From the NCBI RefSeq assembly GCF_000003855.2, contig NW_003101679.1:3179558-3243557 (forward strand): 64,000 bases of DNA. The letters run 5' to 3'. The stretch comes from Blastomyces gilchristii SLH14081 (lineage: Eukaryota > Ascomycota > Eurotiomycetes > Onygenales > Ajellomycetaceae). Positions 2,646-58,905 of the stretch are shown here, one piece after another (the stretch's first letter is position 1; every line of letters begins with the position of its first letter). Below the pieces are notes generated by a model. That model saw only the letters and a program-made list of their open reading frames with translations, made no database searches and was not told the origin of the DNA. Both the position numbers and the translations under genes were made by a program.

Positions 2646-2749
2646 TCTTGAAGGATAACATTGTTATGTTGTAATCTAACTACGCGAGTTACACTAAATG
2701 AATAGGTTGAGGTGGCACATGACTAGGGTAGGTGTAGTAATCACCAACA
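2646..2749 (-). repeat. Copia 3' LTR (104 bp)
   Basis: Read on the minus strand it starts TGTTGGTGATTAC and ends CTTCAAGA. The plus-strand left end (outer end) keeps G/C positions that are A/T in the other LTR, for example GAAGGATAACATTG here against GAAGAATAATATTA at 17361. Confidence 0.9.
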
Positions 2750-5752: not shown

Positions 5753-5934
5753 TGTGGTTCGGAAGAACGTACGACTGTTGGATAATAACGCGGCCGCTTC
5801 CGAACTACTAGCGTACGTGTACAAGTGTAAAGGGGCCATAGCGGCCGCTAATTAAATTAGTGTACAATATTACAATATAAGAAGCCAGTATACACCTGTA
5901 ATCATATGCTGGCTTAAGCAACCTTTGAATCACA
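5753..5934 (+). repeat. Gypsy A1 5' LTR
   Basis: TGTGGTTCGG...GAATCACA, 182 bp. It holds two GCGGCCGC octamers and several CGTACG-type palindromes. The first ~100 bp keep C and G; the inner end is mutated (AGTATACACC where the 3' LTR has GGCGTACGCC). Confidence 0.95.
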
Positions 5935-13920: not shown

Positions 13921-14102
13921 TGTGGTTTGGAAGAATGTATGACTGTCAGATAATAACGCGGCCGCTTCCGAACTACTAGCGTACGCGTACGAGTGTAAAG
14001 GGGCCATAGCGGCCGCTAATTAAATTAGCGTACGATATTACAATATAAGAAGCCGGCGTACGCCTGTAATCGTACGCTGGCTTAAGCAACCTTTGAATCA
14101 CA
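13921..14102 (+). repeat. Gypsy A1 3' LTR
   Basis: 182 bp. Its start (inner end) is mutated (TTTGGAAGAATGTATGAC) relative to the 5' LTR, while its last ~80 bp keep CGTACG motifs that are lost in the 5' LTR. Confidence 0.95.
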
Positions 14103-17358: not shown

Positions 17359-17462
17359 TCTTGAAGAATAATATTATTATGTTGTAATCTAACTACGCGA
17401 GTTACACTAAATGAATAGGTTGAGATAGCATGTGACTAGGGTAGGTGTAGTAATCACCAACA
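17359..17462 (-). repeat. Copia 5' LTR (104 bp)
   Basis: Pairs with 2646-2749. Its plus-strand right end (outer end) is intact, and its left, inner end carries GAAGAATAATATTA where the other copy has GAAGGATAACATTG. Confidence 0.9.
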
Positions 17463-22170: not shown

Positions 22171-22175
22171 GGTAT

Positions 22176-22708
22176 TGTAACATGGCGGAACCGAAGCAGT
22201 GGCTAGTCAGCGGTGTCACATAGAGATAGTTGTTTGAGAAGCTGTATGAGTGGGCTTGACTATCTTGCTTGAATAGTGAGTGTGTAGACTACAGGGTTAT
22301 TACAAGAATATCACAGATATGATACTTAGTATACTAAAAAGATTGTATGAGAAACACAGTAACTCTTATATATATTTCAGTAGAAGAAAAACAAATCATT
22401 AACTTCTTTAATGAGAAGTCAGCATCTAGCTATTCTATATAGATAATAAGTGAATACTCTTCTCTTATTTCATAAGTGAGAATAGCTGAAGTAATATCTC
22501 AGTAGTGTCTTACTATTAAGAAAGAGTAATCTGCTAATCTTATATAGAAGCAGAGTTCTTATATTTATTAATCAGATCTTTCTATAATATATCTGAATAA
22601 TGTTATAAAGTAATTGAAAACTACTTTAAATAGAATGAAATTATCTGTATAAAAGTAATAAGCTGTGTGAAACTGTAACAGAGTCTTAATATGACTGAGA
22701 ATGTAATA
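22176..22708 (-). repeat. Gypsy C 3' LTR (533 bp)
   Basis: The outer end TGTAACATGGCGGAACCGAA is intact and GC-rich, while its inner end reads GACTGAGAATGTAATA where the other LTR keeps GGCCGGGAGCGTGACA. Confidence 0.93.
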
Positions 22709-23337
22709 ATACTCTTCTTTTTAAAAGTATAGTTCTGATACTCTTAAGATTATTAGATTAGAAGTTATCTTTATTATATAGTAATAATTATCAATTAATT
22801 AACAGTATATATACTATAATATAAAGAAATAGATAAGTTTCTCTATTAATTATATAAATCTTTCTTTCTTATCTCTATTTAAATTAAACATGTGATAAGT
22901 GAGTTTCTTATATATTAATTTAGAATATGAAAAACATAGTTAATAAGTAACTTACAGATCTCTTATTATATTTCATTCTATATATAGAATTCTCTACAAA
23001 AGTAGTATATTTCAGAGATAAAGTTAATAGTAGTAGTAGAATTTTTTAAAAAGATCTCTCTCTCTCTATAACACAGTTTTTCTCTTCTTCTCTTATCTTC
23101 AATAGTGAGTGTATGAGAGTATTATTCTTGAAAGATAATAAGAGACTTATTTTAATATTTTCTAGTAAGTAATAAATGTCTTTATAATGCAGCTGCAGTC
23201 TTCATAACTGTTAAGAAAGCCAGGTTAAAGATGAAGATAATAATGTTAATAAGCTGTAAAAGTACTACTTTTATTATTATATCTTCTTCTTCTTCTGTAT
23301 CTCTTACAGCTGTGATGATAGTAGTTATATCTTACAG

Positions 23338-23711
23338 TTTATTATTATTATTATTATTCTTTCATTATACTCATATGCAAGCAGAGCTTATAATGAGTCC
23401 TTGCGTGATGTTAAATACAGGTCAAGTGTTGATTATACAGGAGGAAATACAGGTGTTGAGATCACACCAAGATAACAAGAACATAGAAAAATACAAAGAA
23501 GTGACAATTAGATACATGTGATAATAACTTCCCAGCCCAGGAACATAGAGCAATTCATTGAAGTGATTTGTACACCTCTGTATTTATTAGAAACCTGAGG
23601 TGCTTGAGTTCCGGATTTAATGTATCCCCTGCGGGTTTCGAACCCACGCGCCTTGGTTTCCCATGCCAAGGTGCTACCGGGTGGCCGCATTAACCATTCG
23701 GTCACCGGGGC
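23338..23711 (-). mobile_element. tRNA-derived SINE, copy 1 (374 bp, least mutated)
   Basis: On the minus strand the head GCCCCGGTGACCGAATGG carries a Pol III A box (TGACCGAATGG, 23694-23704) and a perfect B box GGTTCGAAACC (23634-23644) within a T-arm-like stem GTGGG/CCCGC. A ~260-bp body and a tail of AAT repeats follow. A perfect 12-bp duplication TATATCTTACAG flanks it (23326-23337, 23712-23723). It keeps CpG and CCGGGG motifs although the surrounding element is heavily mutated, so it probably arrived after most of that damage. Confidence 0.9.
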
Positions 23712-24051
23712 TATATCTTACAGTGAGATATTATCTCTTTTATTAGTTAATTCATCTGTGTCTGATCTATTCTTCACTCTTCTTACTACTGTTATAACAC
23801 TGCTTCTCTTCTCAGTCAATATAGTAATGTATAACTCTGTGTGATTATTCAGAGAGAATCTCAGAGAGAGCTTGATTCTGAGAATAATAACTTTAAGAAG
23901 TTTAATTTATGATTTCTCTTCTATAGCATATCTGAGCTCTGCTTGAAATACTGCTGAATTGAGTTTACAGAGTTCTATAGTTTTCTTATCTTCTCTCTAT
24001 AAAAAGACTTCAGTGTAGTCTCTGACTAATATTATTATTTATCTATACTAT

Positions 24052-24427
24052 TTATTATTATTATTATTATTATTCTTTCATTATACTCATATATAAGTAA
24101 AGCTTATGATGAGTTCTTATGTGATGTTAAATACAGGTCAAGTGTTGATTATACAGAAGGAAATACAGATGTTAAGACTATATCAAGATAACAAGAATAT
24201 AGAAAAATACAAAGAAGTGATAATTAGATATATATAATAATAACTTCTCAGCCCAGAAATATAGAGTGATTTATTAAAGTGATTTGTACATCTCTGTATT
24301 TATTAGAAATCTGAGATGCTTGAGTTCTGGATTTAATGTATTCTCTGCGGGTTTCAAACTCACATGCCTTGGTTTCTCACGCCAAGGCACTACCAGGTGG
24401 CTGCATTAACTATTCAGCCACCGGGGC
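24052..24427 (-). mobile_element. tRNA-derived SINE, copy 2
   Basis: Same layout and orientation as the copy at 23338, with a longer (AAT)n tail. It is flanked by the 13-bp duplication TTATCTATACTAT (24039-24051, 24428-24440). Many C-to-T and G-to-A changes relative to copy 1, for example CTCTGCGGGTTTCAAACTC where copy 1 has CCCTGCGGGTTTCGAACCC. Confidence 0.9.
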
Positions 24428-24699
24428 TTATCTATACTATGTTAAGCAGCTGAAGAAAGAGAGAATCTTATATATTTACTTCTTCTCTCACTTCTGTTAT
24501 TTTTATTACATCTGTAATAATAACTTTTATCTCTCTGTAAGTACTATCTATTCTATAAGAAGACATTGTGTCAGTTCTGATAAGAAGCTCAGATGCTTAA
24601 GCAGTACAGAGTGAGAATCTCAGAGCTTTAAGTATTAATGAATTTTATCAAGACTAAAGAGATCTCTCTTACTTATCTGTAAAAGAAGATAAAAGCATT

Positions 24700-25075
24700 G
24701 CTCTGATGACTGAATGATTAATACAGCCACTCAGTAGCACCTTGATATGAGAAACCAAGGTGTGTGAGTTTGAAACCTGCAGAGAATACATTAAATTCAG
24801 AACTCAAGCATCTCAGGTTTCTAATAAATACAGAGATGTACAAATCACTTCAATGAATTACTCTATGTTTCTGAGCTGAGAAGTTATTATTATATATATC
24901 TAATTATCACTTCTTTGTATTTTTCTATGTTCTTGTTATCTTGACATAGTCTTAACATCTGTATTTCCTCCTGTATAATCAACACTTGACCTGTATTTAA
25001 CATCACACAAGAACTCATTATAAGCTCCGCTTGTATATGAGTATAATAAAAGAATAATAATAATAGTAATAATAA
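24700..25075 (+). mobile_element. tRNA-derived SINE, copy 3
   Basis: Plus orientation; head GCTCTGATGACTGAATGATT is the mutated form of the copy-1 head. The duplication GATAAAAGCAT flanks it (24688-24698 and 25076-25086). The B box is degraded to AGTTTGAAACC. With copy 2 it forms an inverted pair about 270 bp apart. Confidence 0.9.
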
Positions 25076-26155
25076 GATAAAAGCATGAATCTCTGAGATG
25101 AAAAAACATCTCAGAATGACTAATCTCAAGAAGAGATTAGCTGATACTATTATTAAAAGTATTATAGAGATAAATTACTGATTGAAGAGAATCTCACTTC
25201 AATTGAAGTAAATAACTGAGATGCTTTATAAATTAATAAGTTAATACTTTATATATCTCTTATACTCTTCTGTAGTGCTGCAGTACTAACTTCTCAGCAG
25301 ATAAAGATATTAATATCAGAGACTTCAACAGTGAAGAATAAGTTTAATAAAGATATGATTATTAATAAGTAAGCTCTGAGATTCTCTTCTTTTACTTTTT
25401 CTACAGACTGCAGCTCTATTAGAATAGTAGTAGCTTATAAGTTAATAGTATTAATCTTTTTATTAATTTCAAATATCTCTTTTCTCTAACTGCTTCAGGA
25501 ATTTTACACTTATATAGTCTTATTAAACTTCTAAAAATTCTTTGAGAGAAAATAGATGAAGAGTGCTACAGAGTTTATAAGACATTAGCTCATCATTATA
25601 AGATTATCTTTAAAAAATTCTTTAAGAAAAATAAGAAGTTTTAAACAGTATTTCTTACTCAATATCTCTGATATATAATAAAGTAGTCTCTACTAGTTAT
25701 CTTATAACTTATAATCTCTTTCTCAGCATTTTTCAAATACTTAAACAGTTCTTATAAATTCTCTGATAATAAATAATCTTCTTATTTAATAAGATATTGA
25801 AGCTTGTTATAATGCATTCACTTATTTAATATTTTCTTTATAAGATATTCAGTATCACTCTCAATCTCAATATTATCTGATTAAGACAGCTTCATCTCAG
25901 AGTGTTACTTATAGAGCTTTAAATAGAAAATATGAAAAATAGAATGAATTAATTTCAATTCTGAGAGTAATTTTAACTTATATATCTGCTTATTTATTAC
26001 TCTTATTATCAGGAAAGATTCTAGTCATCACTTACTGAGCTTCTTACACAGTCTCATTGTCTTGATATTCTTTACTGAAAGTAGTACTTAATTCTCTATT
26101 AAGAACTTCATTGAAAGATGTTTTTAATTATAGTATTTCATCTACTACTTCTGAG

Positions 26156-26661
26156 TAGACTGGTCACTGGGACCATGAATTTCATGTTTGATCTCATTTG
26201 ATCTGGTCTCATACATTTCTTAGCGTGAATCCCGCTGGGACTAGTCATTAAAAAAACATGTAAAGTGACTATATATCAGATCTTAAAATGAAATCATGAC
26301 TTGAAAAAAATGAGAAAGTGATTTCATTTGATCTCATTTAGTCTCATTCTTAGCATAAAGTTACTATTTTTAGACATTTTAAGGTTTTTTTTAGACTATT
26401 TTTAATTTTTTAAAAAGTAATGCTTTTTGATAACACTCAAATGAGATTTAAAGTCATTTAAAGCAATAAAAATAATTTAAATTGAGAAGTGAAAATTATG
26501 ATCTCATTTGGAAAATGTGACAAGAGTAGACAGTAAGTCTCACTAAGACAGTATGAAACTACTATCTAATGTTAAAACCGTGTAATGGGATCAGTCGAAT
26601 TGGTAATAAGACTATCAAAAAATCTGGTCCTGGTCTCAGACACGGTCACACAGTCAGTCTA
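26156..26661 (+). mobile_element. hAT-type MITE, copy 2 (506 bp)
   Basis: Same ends as the copy at 3554. Flanked by CTTCTGAG (26148-26155) and CTTCTAAG (26662-26669), an 8-bp duplication with one G-to-A difference. It lies in the 3' half of Gypsy C. Confidence 0.92.
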
Positions 26662-26669
26662 CTTCTAAG

Positions 26670-29600
26670 TATAGTAGATGCTTTTCATCATCTTCTTATG
26701 AATTTTATTTAAAAGTTTCAATCTCACTTTTACTTCTGATACTGAGAGATACTCTGTTCTCTGTATCTATTTAATATTCTGACTGTCTATCTCTCTCTTT
26801 AAAATATCATTCACAATGTCACTGAGTTATAAAGAATTATATTCATAATAAGTATGGAAAGAAGATACTTTTAAGATTGCATTTGTTATATTATTATATA
26901 TAAATTCAGTGATTAGAAGATATTTAAGTCAATTATTCTAATAATATAAATAGAATACTTGAAGATACTGTTCTAGTATTTAGTTCTGATATTTAGTCTG
27001 ATCATCTATTTGTAGATGAAATACAGTGCTGAGAAGATATCTTATTATAAGATAATAGTAAAAAGCTGATCAGTATTTACTAATAAAGAGAGATTCTCAA
27101 TCTATTATCAATGATTTCAGAGTATTATAATTACAAATGATGATATCTAAAAATAGATCAGTTAATTTAAAGGCTTTAATCTTTTTATAAGTAGAGATAT
27201 ATTTTATCATCTTTATAAAACAGTTGACAATGACTAAAATTAAGTCATATTCTTTGACTCTTATCAACTTCAGCAGATTAACTATGAAATTCATTAATAG
27301 ATTCTATCATAAGCTCTTTGAAACAGACAGTGATACTAACTTATCACATTACTTATATCACAGAATCTTTATTCTTTGACAGATATTATAAGTATTAATA
27401 TACTCTTTAATATCTGTCTGAAGCTTGTCTTAAATATATTTATATTTTAAAAGCTTCTCAGTCTTCTCTAATCTGAAGTGTCTTATATAAGAATTATTAT
27501 AATAAATTCTCAATAACTTCTGATGCATCACTCTGCTATAAGAGATGAAGACTGAATTATTCAGTAGTAGAAGTTCATATTCTTCTAGTTATCAGTGACT
27601 TGATTTCTTAGCAGCACTGTTCTACTCAGAATCTGTCTATTTCAAGTTTAAACTGAATTCTTTCTTCTTCAACTTCTGAATTCAAGCTGCAGTAGAGATG
27701 TCTCTCTTCTGTAATTTATTAATGAATTTCAAAAGTAGTCAGATTGAAAGATTATAGATTGTTTCATTCTTTATTAATTCAATAATAGTAAGATATAATA
27801 TAAGAAGCTTATGATCTTCAGTGTCAGTTCTCTGCAGAGACTCAGATTTTCTTTCATCTTCTATACTAAGTCATACAGCTGTCTTATCAGTGTCATTTCT
27901 AAGCTTCAGAGAATCTTAACTCTCTATAGTCAGCTTCTTTCATAGTAATGACAGAGATTCTTTTATAGAATTCTTCTTCTTATTAATAATATTATAATCA
28001 GATTATTTAAACAGTGTATTGATAGAGTTAAGCTGATCTGAACAGTATCAGATATAGAAATCATACTTTGAAAGCAGCTTCACTCATCTGACTTAATATT
28101 CTATCAAGCTCTTTATTGTTAAGAAATAATGCAGATTTATACAATCAGTAAGAACTTACACTGAATACTAACTATTCTGAAGATAATATCATCAGATCTT
28201 AAAGACTTCAATAATTGCTAATATCTCTTGATTATAAGTATTATATCTTCTCTGTGTGAGTGATAACTTCTTGAAGAAGAAGATCACTAATCTTCATTTA
28301 CAGTGTCTGATAGACTTTATGAAAAAGTCTTCTTCTACAGATATTTTATTATCTGTATCTTCAGAGTTTATTATTCTCTGATTCTTTTAACATTGAAAGG
28401 TCTTCAGTGTCAACTGTGAAAAGATTTCATAGATTTCATTCTCAGATACATCTAGACTGACCGTGTGACCGTGTCTGGGACCAGGATCAGATTTTTTGAT
28501 AGTCTCATTACCAATTCGACTGATTCTATTACACGGTTTTAACATTAGATAGTAGTCTCATACTGTCTCAGTGGAACTTACTGTCTACTCTTGTCACATT
28601 TTTCAAATGAGATCATGATTTTCACTTCTCAATTTAAATTATTTTTATTGCTTTAAATGACTTTAAATCTCATTTGAGTGTTACCAAAAAGCATTACTTT
28701 TTAAAAAATTAAAAATAGTCTAAAAAAACCTTAAAATGTCTAAAAATAGTAACTTTATGCCAAGAATGGGACTAAATGGAACCAAATGGGACCACTTTCT
28801 CATTTTTTTCAAGTCATGATTTCATTTTAAGATCTGATATATAGTCACTTTACATGTTTTTTTGATAGCCAGTCCCAGCGGGATTCACGCCAAGAAATGT
28901 ATGAGATCAGATCAAATGAGACCAAATGTGAAATTCATAGTCTCAGTGACCAGTCTAGATACATCAGTCTTACACTGACTGAGTAAGTTGAGATTAAAGT
29001 GATTCAGTATTATGACATCTGTAAAAGCTTGTTTTAATTCTGCAAATGTCTATACAGTGTCTTGAGTGAGAATAAATAATTCTGTTTTTCTGTCTTTCAC
29101 ACTTCTCTTTAACAGATCAGTAAGAGAAACAGTAATTTATAAATATATATAAATGAATTATCTGTAGAAATTTACAAATTCTAGAAATATCTGCATCTTG
29201 CAGTATGTTCACAGCACTGATCAGTTCTTAATGACAGAGACCTAACTTCTGTTCATTCAAATACTGTTCATCTCAATAATATAATCTAAGAAATCAATCT
29301 TCTGTATGTAGAACAAGTATTTCTGAGTGTTTATATAGAGTTGATACTGTCTCAAGTAACTCAACACTTCTTAAATATGAGTATCATGTTCTTCTTCTGT
29401 TTTTGAGAAGATTAAAATGTCATTCAAGTATACTATGCAGGAGATATTGACAAGATCTTACAGTATCTCATTTATATAGATCTGAAAGATGACTGAAGCA
29501 TTACAAAGATCAAAAGATAAAACAAGATACTCAAAATTGCTATACTTGGTATAAAAAGCTGGTTTTTAAACATCATCTTCATTAACTCTGATTCTATGAT

Positions 29601-31560
29601 AGACATTCTGTATATCAATTTTCAACAACACTTTTACTTCAGATAATTAATCAATCATCTTATTAATTAACAGTAATAAATAGTAATTCTTAACTATCAT
29701 CTTATTAAGATCTCTATAGTCTACACATAGATGTAGTCTATCATTCTTCTTAAGTACAAAGAGTATGAGTATCTCTGCTGAACTCTTTGATGAGTGTATT
29801 CAGTTCTTTAATTACACTTTCTCAAGATATTTATACAGAACATTCAATTCCTTTATAGACAAGTTATAAAGAGGCTTATACAGTACTGTTACATTATCTG
29901 TAAGATAAATCTTATATCATATCTTAATATCAGAAAACTTCACTGCTTCTCTTTTTAAAAAGATATTCTTATAATCTGTAAAGAGATATTATGTACATCT
30001 ATCTTTAATAACAGATATCACTGTCAATCTTACAGTGAGAGTGATAACTTCTTCATCTATTCTTAAGTCTCAGTTACCTGCTACACAGTATATCAACTCT
30101 ATATTTTTCTCAAGATTCTTTTAATAAAACTCTTCAGATTTCTCTATCACTGTCTTCTTATCAGTGAGATAATACTGTCATATCTGAATAACTCAGTTAA
30201 TGAGAGAATTGTTTTCTCTCAATTACAGAAGACTTAGAATGACATTCTCATTTATAATGTTAATAATATGAAGAAGCAGACTGCTTTTCTTAAAGATTTC
30301 TTCTAAGTCTGTGATCACACACTTCACTTGAATTATGTCAAAATAATGATATTTTATTTCATCAGTAAATTTCATATAATCTGACATATCTATTTTCTTT
30401 CAACTCTTTATCAAAGAAAAGAAATAGAATATGAAGTTAATATTTATCTCAGAGTCAAGTAGACATCTTACTAATATCTTCTTATTCAGAGTATTTATTG
30501 TGATTATAATATAAACTCAGAGATATAAGAATTATTAATTCTTCATTTTTTTCTCTTCTTTATCTTTTATGAATACATTTATCAGAAGAGAAGTTAACTT
30601 TGAGAAGATATCTTCTCAGTTTCTTTTCTTCTTCAACTTCTTATAATCACTAGTATAGTAATTATCAGCTTCACAGTTAAAATAGAGATCTTTATTAAAT
30701 CTTTTTTAACATTTCTTTACAGTGAGTGAAGAATTAGAATACTTGAAATTCTTCTTTACTTTCTCTACACTGAAGCTATCACAGTGCTATTTAGATCTTA
30801 TCATTAATTTTTAGAAAAGATCTTATTAATCTTTTTCTTAGAGTATTGATTATTTAAATAGATTTAAAAAGTCAAGTTAACAAGCTTAGTACAATTGATT
30901 GATGAACTCTGATACTATAATATCATTATTCATATCTTGTAAGTCAGTCTTATAAGATAAAGCTATATCTTTAATTAATTTAAATCATCAGTCAATTTCT
31001 CTCAATATTCTTTAAATCTTATATTGAAATTAAAAGAATTCTTATTATCTTATTAATATAATGAGTTAAACTACTATACTGCTGTAAAGCTGTGATTACA
31101 GTAATCTTTAATTTAATTCAGTAAAATGTCTTTGAATTCTTCTTAAGTTATAATAATAGTGATATACTCAAGCTCTCTCTTCTTAATAACTTAAGTAGTT
31201 GTAGAGATGTCTTCAAGAAGATTGATAATGTATATTACTTATATCTCATGAGTATTAAACTAGCTCAGATTAAGATGAAATTTTTATTCAAGAGTATAGA
31301 TAAAGCTGTGAAATTCAGATACTATATTTCTCTTATAATTTAGAGAATCTCTGATCTTAATCTCTCTATCTTTATAATAGATGTAGGTGTGTAGAGGCTG
31401 TGATAATGACAGAGTGATTGAAGAGCTCATATCAAAGTATGTAACAGATTCAAAAATCTTAGATTTCTGCTGAGATAGAGATGTACATACTCTAGAGAAT
31501 GATGTGAAGTTTCTCTCAGAGAATGAAGTCAGATCAGTCTCAGTATAAGTATATAAGATT
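26670..31560 (-). pseudogene. Gypsy C gag-pol remains
   Basis: Minus strand, from right to left: gag with a degraded zinc knuckle (YFNCEADNYYTSDY, about 30645-30686); protease region near 30400; RT with VYLNDILIFS (about 29400-29430); RNase H region, in which a hAT MITE sits (28453-28957); integrase with FIVNLLKLIRVKEYDLILVI (27097-27294), the stretch leading from the first catalytic Asp, here lost. Essentially every Trp codon that can be placed reads TGA. No intact frame over 66 codons. Confidence 0.8.
28453..28957 (-). mobile_element. hAT-type MITE, copy 3 (505 bp)
   Basis: Reverse orientation. Perfect 8-bp duplication GATACATC (28445-28452, 28958-28965). It keeps more G and C than copies 4 and 5 (for example AAATGGGACC), so it may be younger or less often mutated. 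Confidence 0.93.
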
Positions 31561-31619
31561 ATATCAGTTCATTAGAGCTTAACTGATTCAAACTTATAAT
31601 CAGATTAAGTGATTTGAAT

Positions 31620-32152
31620 TGTAATATAACAGAACTGAAGTGATGACTAGTCAGCAGTATTATATAAAAGTAGTTATTTAAGAAGCCATATAAGTGAGCT
31701 TGACTATCTTGCTTAAATAGTGAGCTTATAGACTACAGAGTTATTGCAAGAATATCACAGATATAATACTTAGTATACAAAGAAGATTGTACAAGAAACA
31801 TAGTAACTCTTATATATATTTCAGTAAAAGAAAAATGAATCACTGACTTCTTTAATAAGAAGTCAGTATCTAGCTATTCTATATAGATAATGAGCAGATA
31901 CTTTTCTCTCATTTCATGAGTAAGAATAGCTAGAGTAATACCTCAGCAGTGTCTCACTATTAAGAAAGAGTAATCTGCTGACCTTGTATAGAAGTAAGGT
32001 TCTTATATTCATCAATCAGATCTTTCTATAATATATTTGAATGATGTCATAGAGTGATTGAAAATCAGTTTGAACAGGATGAAATCATCCGCATGAAAGC
32101 AATGAGCCGTGTGGAACCGCAACGGGGCCTTGACGCGGCCGGGAGCGTGACA
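31620..32152 (-). repeat. Gypsy C 5' LTR (533 bp)
   Basis: Mirror case of the other LTR: its left, inner end is mutated (TGTAATATAACAGAACTGAA) and its right, outer ~65 bp are GC-rich and intact. Confidence 0.93.
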
Positions 32153-32157
32153 GGTAT

Positions 32158-44853: not shown

Positions 44854-45226
44854 TGTGGCGGGCTGCGCCCGATCAATCATATAGACTATTCCGTTACACT
44901 CCACAGATTCCTACCGCTTCATTCTCGAATGTGTACACTCCGATTCTCGGCCATTCTTGATCGCCGATCCTCAGCTGCTATGAACGCGTATAAATGCGTA
45001 CACTTCAATTCTCGGTCATTCTCAATCGCCGATCCTTGGCTGCTACAAACGCGTGTAAATTCTTTCACTCTGAAGCTCCACCTTGTACATCACCATATAT
45101 GTGTATAAATATTCACTTTAATTACTGATTCTCATACTTTCTCTTTCTTTTCCTTCTTTAATGTTTTTCTCTTTGTTATATAAGTTCTATTTATTATATC
45201 AATCTATTCAGTGTAGATCTCTTACA
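44854..45226 (+). repeat. Gypsy B1 5' LTR (373 bp)
   Basis: Outer end TGTGGCGGGCTGCGCCCGAT intact; inner end mutated (CAGTGTAGATCTCTTACA). It carries an extra 65-bp tandem unit relative to the 3' LTR. Confidence 0.9.
44933..45062 (+). repeat. 65-bp tandem duplication in the B1 5' LTR
   Basis: GTACACT starts at 44933 and 44998; each unit runs through a TCTCGG...ATCGCCGATCCT...GCTGCTA...AACGCGT block. The 3' LTR has a single unit, exactly accounting for the 65-bp length difference (373 against 308). Confidence 0.9.
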
Positions 45227-46915: not shown

Positions 46916-47093
46916 TGTGATTCAAAGGTTGCTTAAGCCAGCGTACGATTACAGGCGTACACCGGCTTCTTATATATTGAATCTCGTACGCTAAATTAAT
47001 TAGTGGCCGCTAGGGCCCCCTTTACATTTGTATGCTAGTAGTTCAGAAGCGGCCGCGTTATTATCCGACGGTCGTACGTTCTTCTGAACCACA
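46916..47093 (-). repeat. Gypsy A2 3' LTR (178 bp)
   Basis: Outer (left) end keeps CAGCGTACGATTACAGG and ACACCGGC; inner end is mutated (CATTTGTATGC, GTTCAGAAGC, CTTCTGAACC). Confidence 0.95.
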
Positions 47094-55005: not shown

Positions 55006-55183
55006 TGTGATTCAAAGGTTGCTTAAGCCAGTGTATGATTACAGGCGTACACCAGCTTCTTATATATTGAATCTCGTACGCTAAATTAATTAGTGGCCGC
55101 TAGGGCCCCCTTTACATTCGTACGCTAGTAGTTCGGAAGCGGCCGCGTTATTATCCGACGGTCGTACGTTCTTCCGAACCACA
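55006..55183 (-). repeat. Gypsy A2 5' LTR (178 bp)
   Basis: Outer (right) end intact (CATTCGTACGC, GTTCGGAAGC, CTTCCGAACC); inner end mutated (CAGTGTATGATTACAGG, ACACCAGC). Confidence 0.95.
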
Positions 55184-58597: not shown

Positions 58598-58905
58598 TGT
58601 GATGAGCTGCACCTGATCAATTATATAGACTATTCTGTTACACTTCACAGATTCTTATCACTTCATTCTTGAATATGTACACTCTGATTCTCAGTCATTC
58701 TCAATCACTGATTCTCAGCTGCTATGAACGCGTGTAAATTCTTCCACTCTGAAGCTCCACTGCATACATCATCACATACACATATAAATATTCACTTTAA
58801 TTACTGATTCTCATACTTTCTCTTTCTTTTCCTTCTTTAACATTTTTCTCTTTGTTATATAAGTTCTATTTATTATACCGATGTATTCAGCGTAGGCCTC
58901 TTACA
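58598..58905 (+). repeat. Gypsy B1 3' LTR (308 bp)
   Basis: Inner start mutated (TGTGATGAGCTGCACCTGAT), outer end intact (CAGCGTAGGCCTCTTACA). Confidence 0.92.

What the first reader, a model, noticed from the sequence alone, without database searches (positions are those of the whole stretch)
22176..32152. Position-dependent mutation within LTR pairs: outer ends spared, inner ends mutated (seen in five elements)
In Gypsy C the left LTR starts TGTAACATGGCGGAACCGAA and the same 20 bases in the right LTR read TGTAATATAACAGAACTGAA: five transitions, all in the inner copy. At the other end the right LTR keeps GGCCGGGAGCGTGACA while the left has GACTGAGAATGTAATA: seven transitions, again only in the inner copy. 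Gypsy A1 (5753/13921), Gypsy A2 (46916/55006), Gypsy B1 (44854/58598) and Copia (2646/17359) show the same crossed pattern. Since the sequence is identical, distance from the element's outer border, not base context, decides. This suggests that the RIP-like process needs homology on both sides and fades over roughly the last 100 bp of a repeat. I recall edge effects in experimental RIP, but not such a clean LTR-internal control.
Basis: seen in the sequence. Interest (0 to 1): 0.88.

Follow-up and report, generated by a model that had tools for sequence, protein, structure and literature searches.

The report
Genome-defence mutation fades at element ends
In a Blastomyces-like fungal genome, the mutations that cripple retrotransposons largely spare roughly the outermost 70-150 bases of an element but hit the identical bases at its inner side, a natural control suggesting that the defence reads long stretches of shared sequence between copies.

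Summary
In Gypsy C, the 5' LTR was the more mutated copy at the LTR's right end in 25 of 25 pairs; at the left end the 3' LTR was more mutated in 23 of 24, 1 tie. In 20 sequenced Gypsy A pairs all 20 are crossed, with 317 transitions against 2 transversions. The effect grades over about 70-175 bp. It persists where the flank is AT-rich. Two solo LTRs with perfect 5-bp duplications are among the least mutated copies found. Best reading: a RIP-like process directed by long colinear homology between whole elements, fading towards the end of homology. Trans-acting RNA guides or LTR-LTR pairing alone cannot explain it, since both LTRs carry the same letters. Preference is CpG above CpA, unlike Neurospora. 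A transcript-bounded or chromatin-bounded process is not fully excluded, and the Copia part of the claim is only half supported. By-product: LTR divergence, used in print to date such elements at about 40 My, is almost wholly such mutation in Gypsy A.

The parts
22176..22708 (+). Gypsy C 5' LTR: outer (left) end spared, inner (right) end mutated
   Evidence: TSD GGTAT at 22171-22175
31620..32152 (+). Gypsy C 3' LTR: inner (left) end mutated, outer (right) end spared
   Evidence: TSD GGTAT at 32153-32157
5753..5934 (+). Gypsy A1 LTR, 5' in the orientation used here; mutated on its inner side
   Evidence: CAGA next to both outer borders
13921..14102 (+). Gypsy A1 LTR, 3' in that orientation
46916..47093 (-). 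Gypsy A2 LTR (element lies in the opposite orientation to A1)
55006..55183 (-). Gypsy A2 partner LTR
44854..45226 (.). Gypsy B1 left LTR (holds extra sequence at a ~65-bp internal tandem unit); none of the transitions in the first 100 columns is on this copy
58598..58905 (.). Gypsy B1 right LTR; the first 100 columns carry 16 transitions that the left LTR lacks
2646..2749 (.). Copia left LTR (104 bp, GAAAC at both outer borders); crossed pattern only in its left half
17359..17462 (.). Copia right LTR

Best explanation
A RIP-like (repeat-induced, C-to-T on either strand) process mutates these retrotransposons after insertion. Its strength at a base depends on how far colinear homology to other full-length copies continues on both sides of that base. 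Inside the element, including the inner end of each LTR, homology runs on and mutation is strong. At the outer LTR border homology to the other copies stops at once, because each insertion has its own flank, and mutation fades over about the last 70-175 bp. Shown: the crossed pattern, its gradient in Gypsy C, its independence of the letters, and its persistence beside AT-rich flanks. Inferred: that the signal is DNA-DNA homology, that whole elements rather than LTRs pair, and that a RID-type methyltransferase carries it out.
For: LTRs are identical at birth (established knowledge of LTR element replication), so each pair is its own control. Discordant sites in Gypsy C pairs (5' mutated: 3' mutated) run 21:159 at bases 1-27 (24 pairs), 19:29 at 110-140 (18 pairs, hand-picked rows), 67:22 at 411-440 (21 pairs), 213:5 at 512-533 (25 pairs). 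Gypsy A crosses over near the LTR midpoint; 17 of 20 pairs have exact adjacent 4-bp duplications; 2 of 319 differences are transversions. A gradient beats a step in Gypsy C. The outer end is less mutated than the inner in 38 of 38 LTRs whose near flank has GC below 0.30 (17 of 17 5', 21 of 21 3'; 55 LTRs had a readable flank; counts). Two 5' LTRs that abut another Gypsy C LTR have low outer ends: L032 0.34 outer against 0.60 inner, L002 0.23 against 0.65 (L002 was found with a query that included the outer end, so it is biased). Solo LTR L022:15-546, GTATA on both sides, has mutated fractions of 0.00-0.17 in eight bins. A second solo LTR, C1:6019152, has GAAAA on both sides and is 95% identical to it, the best of the other whole-length matches listed. 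A Podospora study reports that RIP hits LTRs of full copies but hardly solo LTRs (PMC10787394, passages).
Against: Copia is not clearly crossed. For Gypsy A alone a two-step model scores slightly better (-128.6, 4 parameters) than an exponential (-135.2, 3), and that exponential is not identifiable. The 5' outer end of Gypsy C is less protected than the 3' outer end, and its mutation rises with flank AT content (rho -0.65, n = 26; partial -0.58), so something leaks in from AT-rich neighbours. 2 of 30 3' LTRs (L069, L076) and 3 of 27 5' LTRs (L013, L023, L026) have outer fractions above 0.55. In Zymoseptoria, new RIP mutations peak in the outermost windows of LTR elements (PMC10294615). Solo LTRs proven by duplications are only two and may simply be young; LTRs of two full-spaced elements are also lightly changed (92-93% identical to the solo).
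Confidence: 0.74

Rival explanations
1. Cis-transcription boundary. The element's transcript starts inside the 5' LTR and ends inside the 3' LTR, so the 5' U3 and 3' U5 are untranscribed; a co-transcriptional mutator or nascent-RNA-anchored methylation would give the same crossed pattern.
For: Predicts exactly which LTR ends are spared. Gypsy A fits steps at about 70 and 100 of 182 bp slightly better than a gradient.
Against: Gypsy C shows a gradient, -5771.0 against -5813.6 for steps. C-to-T and G-to-A are similar in inner zones: 0.67/0.60 in 5' and 0.66/0.50 in 3' LTRs, whereas exposure of one strand in transcription should be one-sided. One solo LTR, which should keep its promoter (inference), is nearly unmutated. 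TSS and polyA sites were not mapped.
Confidence: 0.1
2. Chromatin-domain fade. Repeats seed heterochromatin or cytosine methylation that weakens towards the domain edge; methylated cytosines then deaminate slowly, with no meiotic RIP.
For: CpG is the preferred target (Gypsy A CpG 402/1629 against CpA 23/436, inherited differences included), as expected of 5-methylcytosine decay. 5' outer mutation rises with flank AT content.
Against: 38 of the 55 sampled LTRs with a readable flank sit beside AT-rich DNA (GC under 0.30), not at an obvious domain edge, yet the outer end is the lower in all 38. Gypsy C also shows CpA and CpY changes: 482/905 and 648/1906 in inner zones. 2 transversions beside 317 transitions leave little time for slow decay.
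Confidence: 0.13
3. Trans-acting small RNAs, or pairing of the two LTRs of one element with each other, direct the mutation.
For: Both are conceivable routes; a Zymoseptoria study suggests that LTRs are prime targets because they are neighbouring duplicates (PMC10294615).
Against: Both LTRs have the same letters, so a sequence guide acting in trans must treat them alike; LTR-LTR pairing would make both ends of each LTR homology edges. Neither predicts the cross.
Confidence: 0.02
4. Artefact: mispaired LTRs of different elements, search bias towards the query's own pattern, or assembly error.
For: Searches used queries that include the LTR or part of it (7 and 13 the mutated inner ends), so inner ends are biased.
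Against: Degenerate patterns accept either state, giving pairs unbiased at the scored sites. Exact 4-bp duplications in 17 of 20 A pairs. Reversed control patterns gave at most 2 hits against 451-860.
Confidence: 0.01

Closest known systems
RIP in Neurospora crassa (recombination-independent homology recognition)
   Same: C-to-T in repeats, confined to shared homology; a distal ~130-bp portion of one synthetic repeat escaped RIP (PMC4858203: section 11 read; passages).
   Different: CpG rather than CpA preferred here (the Neurospora CpA preference as stated in PMC10787394). Here the edge is read in natural elements with an internal same-sequence control; sexual stage and RID are untested.
RIP on crapaud LTRs, Podospora
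   Same: RIP found on LTRs of full copies but hardly on solo or fragment LTRs (PMC10787394, passages).
   Different: That study kept one LTR (5') per full copy for classification; in the passages seen there is no comparison of inner and outer LTR ends.
De novo RIP in Zymoseptoria tritici TEs
   Same: C:G to T:A changes concentrated in copy-and-paste elements, little leakage outside (PMC10294615, passages).
   Different: There mutations peak in the outermost windows (71 bp on average) of LTR elements, the opposite of what is seen here.
Dating of Blastomyces LTR elements by LTR divergence
   Same: LTR elements of, by inference, a closely related or the same species; published median ages 38 and 45 My (PMC11540331, passages), with the authors' own warning about RIP.
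   Different: Here the divergence that gives 46 My in Gypsy A is 317 transitions and 2 transversions.

Membership tests
Repeat-induced point mutation (RIP) | C:G to T:A transitions in repeats, on both strands, far above other changes | tested here: met
   317 transitions, 2 transversions in 20 A pairs; both C>T and G>A
Repeat-induced point mutation (RIP) | CpA target preference as in Neurospora | tested here: not met
   Gypsy A CpG 402/1629, CpA 23/436, CpC 44/720, CpT 71/739, inherited differences included; Gypsy C inner zones CpG 918/1300, CpA 482/905, CpY 648/1906. Preference is said to differ among fungi (PMC10787394), so this marks a variant and I call it RIP-like
Repeat-induced point mutation (RIP) | Depends on homology between copies | tested here: inconclusive
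   Inner/outer LTR contrast, gradient and lightly mutated solo LTRs are as predicted, but nothing was manipulated and no element with duplicated flanks was found
Repeat-induced point mutation (RIP) | RID-type DNA methyltransferase gene | tested here: inconclusive
   Four PF00145 matches at three loci; sequences could not be fetched, so RID and DIM-2 were not told apart
Repeat-induced point mutation (RIP) | Acts in the sexual cycle before meiosis | not testable with these tools
   Needs crosses
Methylation-driven deamination (MIP-like) | Cytosine methylation of the repeats | not testable with these tools
   No methylation data
LTR retrotransposon (host of the pattern) | Paired direct LTRs with target-site duplication | tested here: met
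   GGTAT for Gypsy C, GAAAC for Copia, 4 bp in 17 of 20 Gypsy A pairs
Ty3/gypsy or copia label | Order of integrase and reverse transcriptase domains | not tested

The most novel reading that the evidence does not exclude
The LTR pairs act as a natural ruler: in this lineage the RIP-like machine integrates colinear homology over about 100 bp to each side of a base, recognises whole elements and not LTRs, and ignores 534-bp solo repeats. This would be a CpG-preferring, long-homology form of RIP opposite in its edge behaviour to Zymoseptoria, and the integration length could be measured in any genome from LTR pairs alone.
Probability: 0.45. Interest if true: 0.8.

Novelty: new variant of a known kind. 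Interest (0 to 1): 0.62.

Why it matters
How RIP senses homology without recombination is an open question, studied with synthetic repeats (PMC4858203). LTR pairs give many ready-made replicates in which letters, age and element are held equal and only the extent of flanking homology differs. The result excludes trans RNA guides and LTR-LTR pairing as sole cause, gives a length scale, and contrasts with a published opposite pattern. It also shows that LTR-divergence dating in such genomes can measure the defence, not time: 46 My from all differences against about 0.4-0.8 My (up to about 3 My at the Poisson limit) from transversions in Gypsy A, and that outer LTR ends and transversions are what can still serve for dating.

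Tried and rejected
Rejected: trans-acting RNA guide and LTR-LTR pairing as sole cause (same letters in both LTRs). Rejected: unequal LTRs made by reverse transcription (LTRs are made identical; changes differ from pair to pair; exact flanking duplications in 17 of 20 A pairs). Rejected: APOBEC-like one-strand editing (C>T and G>A both present). Led nowhere: the first set of 3' LTR coordinates assumed the window element's 9.4-kb spacing; the 19 stretches obtained (one of the 20 asked for lay beyond its contig) gave no match, as 22 of 25 pairs are 7.2-7.8 kb apart. Of 20 further stretches one held a whole 3' LTR, L090, and two a part, L089 and L095. Only three whole Gypsy C pairs are therefore held as sequence (window, L024/L064, L012/L090); the Gypsy C pair counts rest on the pattern lists. 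Those lists show only the first 100 of 629, 860, 719, 792 and 451 places. Of one search's 28 distinct pairs, 20 were fetched, in list order. The 34-bp pattern there allows no transversion, so the transversion count leans low. The 60 LTRs with both ends listed are no census of solo LTRs: the right-end pattern misses both proven solos (one by a base outside the pattern; the other is absent's list though its left end is's). Dropped before counts: of the 35 aligned Gypsy C 5' LTRs the window's own and 7 (query-biased), of the 31 3' LTRs the window's own, and loci whose LTR was broken (one search kept 35 and 31); one 5' and one 3' LTR had no readable flank. Copia: 4 pairs only, inconclusive. No elements inside segmental duplications were found to test the edge directly (none was searched for beyond the loci in hand). 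Literature: eight counted searches (open-access library only); in the listings and passages seen there is no comparison of inner and outer LTR ends under RIP. I read passages or sections, never a whole paper; the 2014 Gladyshev and Kleckner paper, asked for by a DOI recalled from memory, is not held.
Full report
What was checked. The window is G000:C4:3179558-3243557 of a 74.8-Mb genome in 75 contigs. All strings and positions in the finding are exact.

In the window. Gypsy C: 94 transitions, 3 transversions between LTRs; first 100 bp 3 left / 20 right, last 100 bp 29 left / 1 right; one insertion by its GGTAT duplication. A1, A2 and B1 agree, A1 only weakly at its left end (3 left, 4 right). 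Copia agrees only in its left half and is against the claim in its right half (1 left, 3 right).

Across the genome, Gypsy C. 27 other 5' LTRs and 30 other 3' LTRs were compared. Mutated fraction at transition columns is 0.31 (5') against 0.61 (3') in the first 30 bp, and 0.67 against 0.17 in the last 24 bp. The inner ends are biased because the queries contained them; the outer ends are not. Degenerate patterns that accept both states avoid the bias. At the LTR's right end, 25 pairs: the 5' LTR is more mutated in 25, the reverse in 0. At its left end, 24 pairs: the 3' LTR is more mutated in 23, 1 tie. Discordant sites (5':3') are 21:159 (bases 1-27), 19:29 (110-140), 67:22 (411-440), 213:5 (512-533). 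Element by element, 110-140 gives 3 pairs with the 5' and 10 with the 3' LTR more mutated (18 pairs, 5 ties), and 411-440 gives 18 and 3 (21 pairs). These pairs come from the first 100 listed places of each search; the 110-140 set is a hand-picked 39 of 100 rows, the 411-440 set 82 of 100.

Gypsy A. At one pattern near the right end, 29 pairs: 28 with the 5' LTR more mutated, 0 reverse, 1 tie; one 5' LTR is used twice. 20 of the 28 distinct pairs were fetched whole. All 20 are crossed, with 317 discordant transitions and 2 transversions over 3538 sites; 17 of 20 have an exact adjacent 4-bp duplication. The balance passes from 3'-mutated to 5'-mutated between bases 76 and 105 of 182, close to the midpoint.

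Length scale. Gypsy C pairs fit an exponential with 84 bp decay (bootstrap over sites 59-117; sites within one element are not independent). Gypsy A fits steps at about 70 and 100 bp, slightly better than an exponential, which is not identifiable there. Gypsy C population data favour a gradient (-5771.0, decay 175 bp) over steps (-5813.6). A decay shared by both families in bp (-308.7) fits better than one shared in fractions of LTR length (-314.2).

What it is not. Since both LTRs carry the same letters, a sequence guide in trans cannot tell them apart, and pairing of one element's LTRs would make both ends of each LTR edges. An edge of chromatin is unlikely as the main cause: outer is below inner in 17 of 17 5' LTRs and 21 of 21 3' LTRs whose near flank has GC under 0.30 (this compares different sites within one LTR, so it supports but does not replace the paired test). 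Two 5' LTRs that abut another Gypsy C LTR are also low at the outer end: L032 0.34 and L002 0.23; L002 came from a query that included that end and so is biased. Against a pure edge effect: 5' outer mutation rises with flank AT content (rho -0.65, n = 26; 3' -0.25, not significant, n = 29), also after allowing for the rest of the LTR (partial -0.58). 2 of 30 3' LTRs (L069, L076) and 3 of 27 5' LTRs (L013, L023, L026) have outer fractions above 0.55.

Solo LTRs. L022:15-546 is a Gypsy C LTR with GTATA on both sides and mutated fractions of 0.00-0.17 in eight bins; the 563 bp between it and the next, mutated element have GC 0.30 and match the left part of the window's Gypsy B1. A search with it listed 41 matches (40 of 1044 candidates scored). 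The best whole-length ones after itself are C1:6019152-6019686 (95%; GAAAA on both sides, so solo) and C2:5741300 (94%; no clear duplication); a 438-bp partial copy at C4:3781901 is 96%. Two more, C9:2100702 and C2:695142 (93 and 92%), lie at full-element spacing from a partner, so light mutation is not confined to solos. This fits, and does not prove, a need for long homology; a Podospora study reports the same for solo LTRs (PMC10787394, passages). How many solo LTRs exist here was not measured; a published Blastomyces study counts thousands per genome by another method (PMC11540331, passage).

Target sites and machinery. CpG is hit most, unlike the CpA of Neurospora. Four PF00145 matches at three loci exist, one with stops in its frame; they were not typed.

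Against the literature. Neurospora work states that mutation is confined to shared homology and shows one synthetic repeat whose distal ~130 bp escaped (PMC4858203, section 11). In Zymoseptoria, new RIP mutations peak in the outermost windows (71 bp on average) of LTR elements (PMC10294615, passages), which is opposite. In Blastomyces, LTR divergence was used to date elements at medians of 38 and 45 My, with the authors' own warning about RIP (PMC11540331, passages). Gypsy A gives 46 My by the same formula and rate from all differences and 0.4-0.8 My from transversions, if these are one to two thirds of neutral changes. Only 2 transversions were seen, so by the usual Poisson range the figure could reach about 3 My (arithmetic, not run), which overlaps the species split of 1.9 My quoted there. 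Whether Gypsy A is among the elements dated in that paper is not known.

Judgement. The pattern is real, strong and general in the samples of two families, with B1 agreeing in one copy and Copia not. Homology-edge RIP-like mutation is the best explanation (0.74); transcript boundaries and chromatin fade remain open.

Noticed in passing
L022:15-546 (G000:C24:731434-731965) and G000:C1:6019152-6019686: Two Gypsy C solo LTRs with perfect 5-bp duplications (GTATA, GAAAA), among the least mutated copies of the family found.
   Followed up: partly
Gypsy A LTR pairs, L108-L147: 317 transitions against 2 transversions in 20 pairs: LTR-divergence ages in this family measure the mutation process.
   Followed up: yes
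window 23339-23718 and 24055-24433: A ~380-bp direct repeat (88% identical, 716 bp apart) inside this copy of Gypsy C; its LTR spacing is 9444 bp where 22 of 25 listed pairs have 7.2-7.8 kb.
   Followed up: no
window 44854-45226: The left LTR of Gypsy B1 carries about 65 bp of tandem-repeat sequence that the right LTR lacks.
   Followed up: no
window 2646-2749 and 17359-17462: The 104-bp Copia LTR begins TCTTG rather than TG, with GAAAC at both outer borders.
   Followed up: no
L018 and L023 5' flanks: Both elements sit beside what looks by eye like the same very AT-rich repeat (GC 0.14 and 0.12) and have unusually mutated outer ends (0.50 and 0.60), as if mutation leaked in from it.
   Followed up: partly
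G000:C1:2818034, C10:1955341, C11:898335: Three loci matching DNA methylase PF00145; the C11 one has two in-frame TAA (intron or decay).
   Followed up: no
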